6,217 nt of DNA, from NCBI GenBank assembly GCA_002505805.1, contig DAWB01000042.1, positions 2,495 to 8,711 on the forward strand, read 5' to 3'. Position numbers and translations under genes: made by a program. Shown piece by piece: positions 3,161 to 6,217 of this stretch. This DNA is from Methanosaeta sp. UBA80 (GTDB taxonomy: Archaea; Halobacteriota; Methanosarcinia; Methanotrichales; Methanotrichaceae). The number at the start of each line of letters is the position of its first letter. Positions within the stretch are counted from its first letter, which is position 1. The notes under the pieces are model-generated. The model was not told where the DNA came from and made no database searches. It was given only the letters and a program-made list of their open reading frames with translations.

Positions 3161-3700
3161 CTAAAGGCCGGCGAACTCCTTGGCCCAGTAGGTGATGATC
3201 AGATCCGCCCCCGCCCTCTTGATGCAGGTGAGCGACTCCAGAAAGGCCGCCCTCTCATCCAGCCATCCTCTCTCTGCCGCGGCTGCGATCATGGCATACT
3301 TCCCTGAGACCTGATAGGCGGCGGTGGGATTAACAGACATCTCCTTGACCGCCCGCAGGACATCGAGGTATGGTAACGCTGGCTTGACCATTACCATATC
3401 AACACCCACCTCTATGTCCAGCTGCATTTCCCAGAAGGCCTCGGCGAAGTTGGCCGGATTCATCTGGTAGCTCTTGCAGTCGCCCCAGGAGTATCCGGAT
3501 TCCGCCGCCTCCCGGAAAGGGGCCATAAAAGGTGGATGCATGCTTGGCGGCATAGGAGAGATAGGCATATCGATAAAGCCGTCCGTCCAGCACCGCCCGG
3601 ATATCCTGCTCCATATGATCCATCATCCCGCGGGGGCTATGATATCCGCCCCCGCCGCAGCGTGGCTCGATGCCTTCTCGCCCAGCAGGGGCAATTGCTA
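3161..3700 (-). pseudogene. hemB: Truncated, frameshifted hemB remnant (porphobilinogen synthase C-terminal half)
   Basis: HemB condenses two 5-aminolevulinate molecules to porphobilinogen in tetrapyrrole synthesis, which supplies F430, corrinoids and heme. Only the C-terminal part is present, about 180 of the usual 320-335 residues. Read on the minus strand, LPLLGEKASSHAAAGADIIA lies at about 3640-3697. After a one-base loss near 3627 comes MMDHMEQDIRAVLD through SYAAKHASTFYGPF (to about 3526). After a one-base gain near 3525 comes REAAESGYSWGDCKSYQMNP through VMVKPALPYLD and TYWAKEFAGL, ending at the TAG at 3161. Both active-site lysine motifs (SYAAK and MVKPA) remain. The usual GDRKSYQM is GDCKSYQM and the usual VSGEYAM is VSGKYAM, both changes at conserved positions. 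An in-frame TAG at 3698-3700 and fading similarity upstream mark the left end of homology. It cannot encode a working enzyme. A second hemB begins at the right edge of the window. Confidence 0.88.
3170..3187. repeat. Direct repeat at hemB 3' end, left copy
   Basis: GGCGAACTCCTTGGCCCA here recurs at 6200-6217, offset exactly 3030 bases, in the same orientation. It is the visible edge of a longer hemB duplication: the left copy continues at least to about 3700, while the right copy is cut by the window. The sequences outside the repeat toward lower coordinates (hemB 3' flanks) are not similar, so the duplication stops at the hemB stop codon. Confidence 0.75.
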
Positions 3701-3743
3701 TGTTATCGCTTATGCCTACAGCAGTTGGCTAGCGGAGCCAATC

Positions 3744-3755
3744 TTTTTTATATTT
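3744..3755 (+). promoter_or_regulatory. Possible TATA promoter of the GT2 gene
   Basis: The plus strand reads TTTTTTATATTT just right of the hemB remnant, an AT-rich TATA-like element. Transcription would start around 3775-3780, about 20 bases before the ATG at 3799. The message would then include the ribosome-binding site AAGGA at 3788-3792. The TTG at 3754, the longest possible start, overlaps this element and is therefore unlikely. Confidence 0.45.
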
Positions 3756-3798
3756 GAAAGCAGATGAGAAGGCGATCTTAAGCTTGCAAGGATATAAA

Positions 3799-4857
3799 AT
3801 GCCGCATCAAGAGATGACAAGAAATGAATTCCATGAGAAGCCTGAAGAGAGTTTTTCATGCCGAAGGGATTTGGATCTCATTTCAAAGGACCAAGCGATG
3901 CCACTTGTTTCCATCATTGTCGTAAATTGGAACGGCTTGAAACATATAGATGAATGCCTCAAATCCCTTCTAAATCAGATATATTCTAATATGGAAATTA
4001 TTTTAGTTGATAACTGCTCAGAGGACGGATCTGTCGAATTTGTTAGACAGAATTTTTTATCTGTTAAGATAATAATGAACGATGGCAATATGGGTTTTGC
4101 TGCAGCAATGAACCGCGGCTCAGAGGACGGATCTGTCGAATTGATTGCATCGCTCAATCAAAACACTGTTGCAGAGAAGAATTGGCTGAATAAGCTGGTA
4201 GAAGTTATTTTAAGCTCGGAAGATATTGCCGGAGCATCGGGAAAAATCTATTATTTAGATAATAAAGACTCAATATATTGTACCTGGGTCAAGATCAATC
4301 CATTCACTGCCATCCCATATTCCTTTCATGGCCTTGAGGGCAGCTCGAGCGTCGACTATCTTATTGGTTGCGCCATGGTAATCAGGAGAGATGCCATAGA
4401 TGAGATTGGGCTTATTGACGAAGGATACTTCCTCTATTATGAAGACAGCGACTGGTGTGCCAGACTCATCCGAGCAGGCTATAAACTATTTTACGTACCT
4501 GATGCAATTGCCTGGCATGCGGTTTCAGGTTCTTTAAGCAATTCATGTTTTAAATTTTCATATCTGATGCGCAATAGAATTAGATTTATCCTGAAAAATT
4601 TTGATATTAGGTATATCCTTATATTTATAATGCTATTTCCAATAGAAATAGTGATTGATTTAAAAAATGACATTGCTAGAAGTGATCTAAGAGCACCAAG
4701 AATAAGATTCAATGCTATTTTATGGAACATACTAAATATAAGATCCACATATAACGCACGCCGTAGAGACTTGTCCAGAATAGTCAATATAAAATCGTAT
4801 AACCGATCATTGCCTTTGAGATCTTATAAAATCGGATTTTTTGAGAAGTGGACTTGA
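3799..4857 (+). CDS. Family 2 glycosyltransferase (GT-A fold), possibly impaired
   Basis: This should transfer a sugar from a nucleotide donor to a surface-glycan or lipid-linked acceptor at the cytoplasmic face of the membrane; donor and acceptor cannot be read. It resembles rhamnosyltransferase-like GT2 enzymes. From the ATG at 3799 it has 352 residues: GT2 opening SIIVVNWNG (about 38-46), EIILVDNCSEDGSVEF with the first nucleotide-binding Asp (about D71), GFAAAMNRG (about 99-107), GCAMVIRRD (about 190-198) and acceptor-site YYEDSDWCARL (about 213-223). A hydrophobic segment YILIFIMLFPIEIVIDL (about 272-288) may hold it to the membrane. Two oddities: the metal-binding motif usually LNxDT is LNQNT (119-123), and SEDGSVE occurs twice through a 25-base repeat. 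The 3799 start has AAGGA six bases upstream; ATG 3898, just before the domain, also has AAGGA and is an alternative. The DNA is AT-rich unlike its left neighbours. Confidence 0.88.
   Translation: MPHQEMTRNEFHEKPEESFSCRRDLDLISKDQAMPLVSIIVVNWNGLKHIDECLKSLLNQIYSNMEIILVDNCSEDGSVEFVRQNFLSVKIIMNDGNMGFAAAMNRGSEDGSVELIASLNQNTVAEKNWLNKLVEVILSSEDIAGASGKIYYLDNKDSIYCTWVKINPFTAIPYSFHGLEGSSSVDYLIGCAMVIRRDAIDEIGLIDEGYFLYYEDSDWCARLIRAGYKLFYVPDAIAWHAVSGSLSNSCFKFSYLMRNRIRFILKNFDIRYILIFIMLFPIEIVIDLKNDIARSDLRAPRIRFNAILWNILNIRSTYNARRRDLSRIVNIKSYNRSLPLRSYKIGFFEKWT
4016..4040 (+). repeat. 25-base direct repeat inside GT2 gene, copy 1 (native position)
   Basis: These 25 bases run from GCTCAGAGGACGG to TCTGTCGAATT and encode the SEDGSVE part of VDNCSEDGSVEF, which is where GT2 enzymes normally carry VDN-S-DGS. 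This copy is therefore the likely donor. An identical copy lies 102 bases (34 codons) downstream in the same frame. Confidence 0.9.
4118..4142 (+). repeat. 25-base direct repeat inside GT2 gene, copy 2 (patched position)
   Basis: This is identical to 4016-4040 over 25 bases and differs immediately outside on both sides. It encodes SEDGSVE between NRG and LIASLNQNT, where family members have a variable stretch such as IK-x-SKGDY. The spacing between the NxG and the I-A-x-L-N motifs stays normal at eight residues. The segment therefore appears to have replaced the original sequence rather than been inserted. Confidence 0.9.
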
Positions 4858-5414: not shown

Positions 5415-5463
5415 CCGGTTTACCTGCGAATCCGTAAAGGGCACGCTCTGGAGAACGGTAGAC

Positions 5464-6099
5464 ATGGTAATTGCCTACCCAGGATTGAATGTCTCAGGAC
5501 TTGGCAAGAAGATCCCAGCTCGCAGCCCCGGCCAGGTTCTTCATCTTCTCTTCGTAGGCTATATTACTTCCAGAAAAGGGGTGGATGTACTTATCCGGGC
5601 CACGGAGATCCTCATTAAAGAGAGGGGAATGAAGAATACTATTATTCATATTGTCGGGAATACTGAAATCGATAAAAATTATTTTCAGGAAATAAAAAAT
5701 TATTCACAGAATGCCGCCATTGATCAGCATATAATCTTTCATGGATGGGTCGATAACCGGGAGATTGAGGAGCTGTACCTCAAAGCGGATATTTTCGTCT
5801 TTCCATCTCTCATGGAGGGCTTTGGCATGGTCCTGGCCGAGGCCGCATCTTATGGACTGCCAATCGTAACCACCGATGCCGGTGCCATACCCTATTTGAT
5901 CAAAGATGGCGTCAATGGCATCCTAGTACCTCCCGGGGATGCAAAAAGCCTGGCTCTTGCCATAGAGCATCTCGCCGCATCCCCCGATCTAAGAGAGGAG
6001 TTCAGCCAGGCCAACCGCAAGCTTGCAGAGAAATTTCAATGGGAAAGGTCCCTTTCAAAAATCACAGCATTTCTGCAGAAGCTTGCCGACCTGGCCTAA
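5464..6099 (+). CDS. GT4-like glycosyltransferase, C-terminal donor-binding part
   Basis: This is the sugar-nucleotide-binding half of the same GT-B enzyme. The homologous reading frame really begins at 5392 (SDGIVVNSRFTCES), and the ATG at 5464 is only the first Met in it, preceded by a modest GGAG at 5450-5453. It shows the linker YPGLNVSG, the second Rossmann opening HLLFVGYITSRKGVDVLIRA (about 27-46 from this Met), HIVGNTE, HGWVDNREI, and the E-x7-E motif in MEGFGMVLAEAASYGLPIV (E118 and E126), which binds the donor sugar. VNGILVPPGD follows at about 149-158. These are hallmarks of Glycos_transf_1 (GT4) proteins. Donor and acceptor are not predictable. Without the N-terminal half it is unlikely to work by itself. 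GC content rises toward its end (35 of 60 bases at 5821-5880), unlike the first half of the gene. It runs toward the hemB at the right edge, with 85 bases between stop codons. Confidence 0.85.
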   Translation: MVIAYPGLNVSGLGKKIPARSPGQVLHLLFVGYITSRKGVDVLIRATEILIKERGMKNTIIHIVGNTEIDKNYFQEIKNYSQNAAIDQHIIFHGWVDNREIEELYLKADIFVFPSLMEGFGMVLAEAASYGLPIVTTDAGAIPYLIKDGVNGILVPPGDAKSLALAIEHLAASPDLREEFSQANRKLAEKFQWERSLSKITAFLQKLADLA

Positions 6100-6184
6100 G
6101 AGACCACTATCGCTCCGAATTAAAGACCAAGCTGAGCGAGGGCTTAGTGGCGAGGGCTGGTGGGGGCCTCCAGAGACCAGGTCC

Positions 6185-6217
6185 CTACAGCCCCAGCCTG
6201 GCGAACTCCTTGGCCCA
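6185..6217 (-). CDS. hemB: Second hemB, last ten codons only (cut by window edge)
   Basis: On the minus strand the window ends in WAKEFARLGL followed by TAG at 6185-6187. The WAKEFA core is identical to the C-terminus of the hemB remnant (TYWAKEFAGL), and AKE-x-AR is the usual end of porphobilinogen synthase. The shared DNA is 18 identical bases (6200-6217 against 3170-3187), and the match is still running at the edge. The tail ARLGL is closer to the family norm than the remnant's AGL. The rest of the gene lies outside, so whether it is full length and intact cannot be seen; a functional copy is expected because the left one is broken. Confidence 0.6.
   Translation of the reverse strand, partial: WAKEFARLGL
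6200..6217. repeat. Direct repeat at hemB 3' end, right copy
   Basis: Identical to 3170-3187 and still matching at the last base of the window. Together the two copies bracket the glycosyltransferase genes. Confidence 0.75.

What the first reader, a model, noticed from the sequence alone, without database searches (positions are those of the whole stretch)
3161..6217. Glycosyltransferase cassette bracketed by two copies of the hemB 3' region
A decayed 3' half of hemB lies left of two plus-strand glycosyltransferase genes, and a second hemB end in the same orientation lies at the right edge, with 18 identical bases 3030 apart. The flanks downstream of the two stop codons are unrelated. This is the geometry expected if a circular or linear segment carrying a hemB 3' portion plus sugar-transfer genes recombined into the resident hemB: the incoming end completes the gene on the right and the old end with its terminator is pushed left and decays. 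HemB as an anchor for swapping surface-glycan genes would be an unusual integration site. The window has no integrase, so homologous recombination or past loss of the enzyme are both open.
Basis: partly seen in the sequence, partly recalled or inferred. Interest (0 to 1): 0.7.

Follow-up and report, generated by a model that had tools for sequence, protein, structure and literature searches.

The report
Gene-insertion scar at hemB
In an uncultured, probably methane-making archaeon, two sugar-transfer genes (one broken) lie between a decayed back half of the haem gene hemB and the last 33 bases of a second hemB copy; this is likely the scar of DNA that recombined into hemB, though the rest of the second copy lies off the end of the assembled piece.

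Summary
Window 3161-3693 (minus) is a decayed hemB 3' half: four frame-breaking indels and a fast branch within its own clade. Window 6185-6217 (minus) encodes WAKEFARLGL-stop, the hemB C-terminus. Between them lie an intact glycosyltransferase and a second one broken by one inserted base. In the closest relative (G025), lysA, the small gene and a hemB end are adjacent with nothing between, and that hemB looks selected: a near-empty site, although its contig too ends inside hemB. In 11 other genomes examined, lysA and the small gene are not near hemB. Best reading: a one-sided, homology-guided insertion gave hemB a new 3' end and left the old one to decay, as proposed for Rhs and T6SS displacement. 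Recent import from afar is not supported: glycosyltransferase 2 differs from G025's copy no more than backbone genes do. The relic is more diverged from G025 than its neighbours are, even at silent sites, so it may be older than assumed. A single case; nothing shows hemB to be a recurrent anchor.

The parts
3161..3693 (-). hemB 3' relic (about codon 138 to stop), four frame-breaking indels, ends WAKEFAGL
   Evidence: Pfam ALAD E 9.3e-52 on 3161-3568; indels; branch 0.14 against 0.043 and 0.016 for its two nearest rows
3799..4857 (+). glycosyltransferase 1 (Pfam Glycos_transf_2), intact reading frame (ORF open from 3754)
   Evidence: Pfam E 4.4e-23; relatives P0121-P0125 at 73-97% over 69-96% of the query
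4974..6099 (+). glycosyltransferase 2 (Pfam Glycos_transf_1), broken by one inserted base at 5382 (ORFs 4974-5414 and 5464-6099)
   Evidence: Pfam E 1.8e-40 on the second ORF, no Pfam match for the first; frame break relative to G025 C19
6100..6184 (.). spacer between the convergent glycosyltransferase 2 and right hemB end
   Evidence: blastn at E 0.01 against the loci held matched only copies of this same contig
6185..6217 (-). last 10 codons and stop of a second hemB (WAKEFARLGL*); continues off the contig
   Evidence: C-terminus identical to 12 of 14 intact hemB proteins read
2778..2975 (-). small membrane-type protein next to the relic (label from reading, no Pfam match)
   Evidence: 95% identical in G025 C116, same order
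1188..2489 (-). pyridoxal-dependent decarboxylase, called lysA here (gene name inferred)
   Evidence: Pfam Orn_Arg_deC_N and Orn_DAP_Arg_deC; same order in G025 C116

Best explanation
The stretch between the two hemB ends is likely the scar of an insertion in which DNA carrying a hemB 3' end and a piece of a surface-polysaccharide gene cluster recombined with the resident hemB, gave that gene a new 3' end on the right and left its old 3' half, next to the small gene and lysA, to decay. Shown: the two hemB ends, the decay, the cargo, and a relative (G025) with lysA, the small gene and a hemB end directly adjacent. Inferred: that hemB continues intact to the right, that one end joined through hemB homology, and that the other end (glycosyltransferase side, at hemB codon ~138) joined without homology or by closure of a circle. 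This is the logic of homology-facilitated illegitimate recombination, or of a single-crossover (Campbell) integration; the sequence cannot separate these two. No dedicated integrase is needed. The cargo probably came from the same clade or from elsewhere in the same chromosome rather than from a distant donor.
For: Right edge is a true hemB C-terminus. G025 C116 shows lysA-small-hemB collinear with window 179-3603 at 87.9% and no cargo; its hemB piece is under selection (dN/dS 0.06 against G003, 0.03 against C417). The relic clusters with the clade's own hemB (100/99 support) on a long branch. Four database proteins with the same altered C-terminus (P0001, P0002, P0003, P0010; three differing versions, each unlike the window's ORF by one residue or more) show that the relic is not an error of this one sequence. 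The relic and G025's hemB share a 72-base exact run from window 3170, which would explain why the assembly stops just inside the second copy. Bin contig C228 ends at the hemA start, and neither search of the bin found the rest of hemA or another hemB, as expected if a ~2 kb piece between C72 and C228 went unbinned. Related gene pairs sit inside longer polysaccharide clusters in other genomes, so the cargo looks like a fragment of one.
Against: Only 33 nt of the right copy are visible. G025 C116 itself ends inside hemB, has lost its stop codon (66-residue read-on), and overlaps C417 with 11 differences in 227 bases, so G025 may be a mixture or may also have two copies. The relic differs from C116 at 34 of 142 third codon positions (dS 0.62 over the 135-codon ORF, whose first dozen codons are out of frame), against dS 0.20-0.21 for lysA and the small gene beside it, so the relic may predate the split from G025. 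Glycosyltransferase 2 diverges from G025 like the backbone (dS 0.161 and 0.107), so recent import is not indicated. The join of relic to glycosyltransferase 1 is seen in one assembly only. P0004 begins at about the relic's breakpoint, which could also mean an older duplication.
Confidence: 0.5

Rival explanations
1. Rearrangement inside one genome: the glycosyltransferases already lay beside hemB, and a copy of the hemB 3' half was placed next to the small gene by duplication or inversion, without incoming DNA.
For: Glycosyltransferase 2 divergence from G025 is backbone-like; the relic is more diverged from G025 than its neighbours; two genes that follow hemB in other species sit away from it on G000 C107, and part of one on G025 C21, so the region has rearranged.
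Against: G025 keeps lysA-small next to a selected hemB end, so the left neighbour looks like the resident one.
Confidence: 0.25
2. Assembly or binning artefact: contig C72 is a false join of pieces from co-occurring strains at or near hemB.
For: MAG 66.6% complete in 244 contigs with a run of N in this contig; the contig ends inside a repeat; glycosyltransferase 1 carries an exact 25-base repeat, and a version lacking the stretch between the copies exists (P0122).
Against: The window had no second match in its own bin at E 1e-3 (40 of 49 candidate places scored), so no long repeat was seen at the joins; relic-type and glycosyltransferase-1-type proteins occur elsewhere, though not shown joined.
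Confidence: 0.15
3. Site-specific integration at the hemB 3' end by an integrase later lost; the two ends are attachment sites.
For: Cargo is bounded by two copies of a gene 3' end, the common geometry of integrase targets (recalled).
Against: The left duplicate is over 530 nt, far longer than a usual att core (recalled); no integrase among the ORFs scanned and no tRNA; no second case in the 59 other genomes.
Confidence: 0.07

Closest known systems
Displacement arrays of T6SS effector loci and Rhs C-terminal displacement (PMC5361080, passages read)
   Same: Incoming DNA anchored by a conserved gene part gives the gene a new 3' end; older 3' parts are shifted downstream and kept as orphans; homology-facilitated illegitimate recombination is the mechanism proposed there
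   Different: Here the anchor is a haem-synthesis gene whose protein end does not change, the cargo is glycosyltransferases, and only one case is seen
Homology-facilitated illegitimate recombination (PMC3240628, start of abstract seen in the listing)
   Same: One homologous and one non-homologous end would give this product
   Different: That abstract speaks of bacteria; not tested in Methanothrix
Integrase islands at gene 3' ends (recalled)
   Same: Gene end duplicated around cargo
   Different: No integrase seen, long left duplicate

Membership tests
Homology-facilitated insertion / 3'-end displacement scar | Resident gene 3' end retained as orphan next to its original downstream neighbour | tested here: met
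   Relic beside small-lysA, as a hemB end is in G025
Homology-facilitated insertion / 3'-end displacement scar | Complete gene with new 3' end on the other side of the cargo | tested here: inconclusive
   Only 33 nt visible; contig ends
Homology-facilitated insertion / 3'-end displacement scar | Empty site in a relative | tested here: inconclusive
   G025 C116 lacks cargo between small and hemB but ends within hemB
Homology-facilitated insertion / 3'-end displacement scar | Non-homologous junction at the other end | tested here: inconclusive
   Homology to hemB stops at 3693 with no repeat reported there; a circular donor is not excluded
Integrase-borne genomic island | Integrase gene in or beside the cargo | tested here: not met
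   None among the eight ORFs scanned with Pfam; sequence right of 6217 not available
Integrase-borne genomic island | Recurrent occupation of the same site | tested here: not met
   Of 59 other genomes, two have two hemB matches: G025 (two contigs), and G017, whose second is an overlapping contig end

The most novel reading that the evidence does not exclude
hemB is a standing recombination anchor through which this Methanothrix clade trades surface-polysaccharide genes: each import brings its own hemB 3' end, keeps haem synthesis intact, and leaves a hemB relic behind as a fossil of the swap.
Probability: 0.08. Interest if true: 0.6.

Novelty: new variant of a known kind. Interest (0 to 1): 0.33.

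Why it matters
If right, it shows that 3'-end displacement, discussed for toxin-effector loci in bacteria, also happens at a housekeeping gene in an uncultured archaeon, and that such events leave relics whose decay can be measured. As a single case at a contig end it is a small piece of genome history, not a system.

Tried and rejected
Recent horizontal import of glycosyltransferase 2: first suggested by 96% identity to G025 against 88% for the neighbouring backbone, dropped when silent rates proved similar. A second two-ended hemB in G017: its two contigs are reverse complements at their ends, so one gene (my reading). Ancestral duplication shared by G000 and G025: the relic does not group with G025 C116 in particular, but its silent divergence from C116 is high, and P0003 and C116 share an AAQSG pattern found in 0 of 14 intact proteins read, so this stays open. 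Viral carriage of either glycosyltransferase: no relative found in viral contigs (one scan each, close relatives only). RNA families: none up to E 0.1. Papers: six searches. For hemB + genomic island + integration site three papers were listed; none is about this by title or start of abstract, and I read none of them. That is not proof of absence.

Full report
Where it is. The window is G000:C72:2495-8711, and contig C72 is 8711 bases long, so the window's right edge is the contig's right edge. G000 is an unnamed draft genome (66.6% complete, 2.6% contamination, 244 contigs). It is probably Methanothrix or close to it: a hemB protein 97% identical to the nearest relative's is named Methanothrix (P0247). 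That relative, G025, appears to be record CALMJN01, an uncultured Methanosarcinales archaeon, because its contig C19 and the record's contig 19 agree in length and match position. Gene names hemA, lysA, sufC, sirC, tgt and yhhQ are mine, from sequence and order; hemB and the glycosyltransferases rest on Pfam.

The two hemB ends. The left piece (3161-3693, minus) is ALAD/hemB and carries three frame-breaking indels against both G025 hemB contigs and a fourth against C417, where C116 does not reach. The right piece (6185-6217) encodes WAKEFARLGL and stop, the C-terminus of 12 of 14 intact hemB proteins that I read. Of its 33 bases the 32 aligned are identical to G025 C116; the last base of the stop differs, since C116 has lost its stop. 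The ALAD search of the own bin finds only the left piece (two overlapping matches on C72). A DNA search with G025's hemB-hemA contig finds only the left piece and contig C228, whose match begins at the hemA start and which ends there. So hemB and nearly all of hemA, about 2 kb, were not found in this incomplete bin. This fits, but does not prove, C72 - hemB - hemA - C228. The relic and G025's hemB are identical for 72 bases from window 3170, a natural reason for the assembly to stop where it does.

Relatives. Of 60 genomes searched with the relic (own included), 53 have a match; of the 59 others, G025 and G017 have two, and G017's second is a contig-end overlap of the same gene. I fetched hemB surroundings from 12 of the 52 others with a match. 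In 11 of these, with 8.3 kb or more downstream of hemB, neither lysA nor the small gene was found near hemB. In G025 they are there, in the window's order, 87.9% identical over window 179-3603. Eight of the 11 share a different downstream gene; it and the next one lie away from hemB on G000 C107, and part of one on G025 C21. Thus this clade seems to have moved hemB next to small-lysA, and G025 approximates the unoccupied arrangement. Caveats: C116 ends inside hemB; its hemB reads on for 66 residues; and it differs from the second G025 hemB contig (C417) at 11 of 227 overlapping bases, 9 of them third-codon. The low dN/dS between the two (0.03) fits two closely related strains, or a resident and an incoming version.

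Age and decay. In a maximum-likelihood tree of 23 rows the relic groups with the two G025 hemB pieces (100/99) on a branch of 0.14 against 0.043 and 0.016. Against G003, first and second codon positions differ at 29 of 346 for the relic and 14 of 300 for C116. Against C116 the relic differs at 34 of 142 third positions, with dS 0.62 over its ORF, more than the genes beside it (0.20-0.21); the relic may therefore be older than the split from G025, or evolving fast because unconstrained. Four database proteins end like the relic (P0001, P0002, P0003, P0010); P0010 equals the end of P0003, so there are three differing versions, and each differs from the window's ORF. Three of the four show '-' as source, the mark the tool uses for the window's own proteins, so their independence is not complete; P0003 is from another source. 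P0004 starts at about the relic's breakpoint but may simply be cut by its contig end.

The cargo. Glycosyltransferase 1 is intact; P0121-P0125 are 73-97% identical, while in 50 family genomes (15 with a match at E 1e-25) the best one outside the window is 36%. Glycosyltransferase 2 is frame-broken at 5382. G025 has it at 96% on contig C19, beside a DDE_3 transposase (IS630-like, recalled) and yhhQ; in G000 yhhQ is followed by other sequence. Its silent divergence from G025 is 0.161 and 0.107 in two parts, against 0.105-0.351 for ten backbone genes, and 1.23 for an eleventh, sufC. So it has probably been in the clade about as long as the backbone; glycosyltransferase 1 could not be tested so. 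Distant relatives of both genes (glycosyltransferase 1 at 29-32%) lie side by side in G018, G007 and G032, and with other ORFs between in G002 and G027. In G032 two flippase-type genes, a nucleotidyltransferase and a sugar dehydratase are nearby. What sits at hemB therefore looks like a fragment of such a cluster.

Mechanism. The product (old 3' end by its old neighbour, cargo, new 3' end) is what one homologous crossover in hemB plus one non-homologous join, or a single crossover with a circle, would leave. The same logic is proposed for T6SS and Rhs displacement arrays (PMC5361080, passages read). I rate this at 0.5, with internal rearrangement, artefact and lost integrase as rivals. Composition marks the cargo as distinct (GC 0.30-0.52 in 300-base windows from 3751 on, 0.47-0.65 to its left), which alone does not prove import.

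Verdict.

Noticed in passing
window 4016-4040 and 4118-4142: Exact 25-base repeat inside glycosyltransferase 1: P0121 and P0124 have I(I/M)SASGE where the second copy puts SEDGSVE, and P0122 lacks the stretch between the copies. A short templated copy event or an assembly effect.
   Followed up: partly
window 1-510: The sufC-like ATPase differs from G025 with dS 1.23 (102 codons) while ten other backbone genes lie at 0.105-0.351; mismatches fall from 20-23% in the 100-base bins before 479 to 5% in the next, though later bins vary too, up to 32%. A recombination breakpoint or a scaffold join; a run of N lies just left of the window.
   Followed up: partly
L067 4085-5155: Transposase element (DDE_3) found once in the G025 bin and not in G000, abutting the 5'-truncated glycosyltransferase 2 of G025.
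   Followed up: partly
L142 1-1890: In G025 a gene that follows hemB in other species matches only in part and is followed by a flippase-like and a methyltransferase-like ORF: possibly another polysaccharide insertion into a core gene. Labels are from reading, not from a search.
   Followed up: no
P0022: A 102-residue truncated hemB-like protein listed on 31 contigs, possibly another hemB relic in a related lineage.
   Followed up: no
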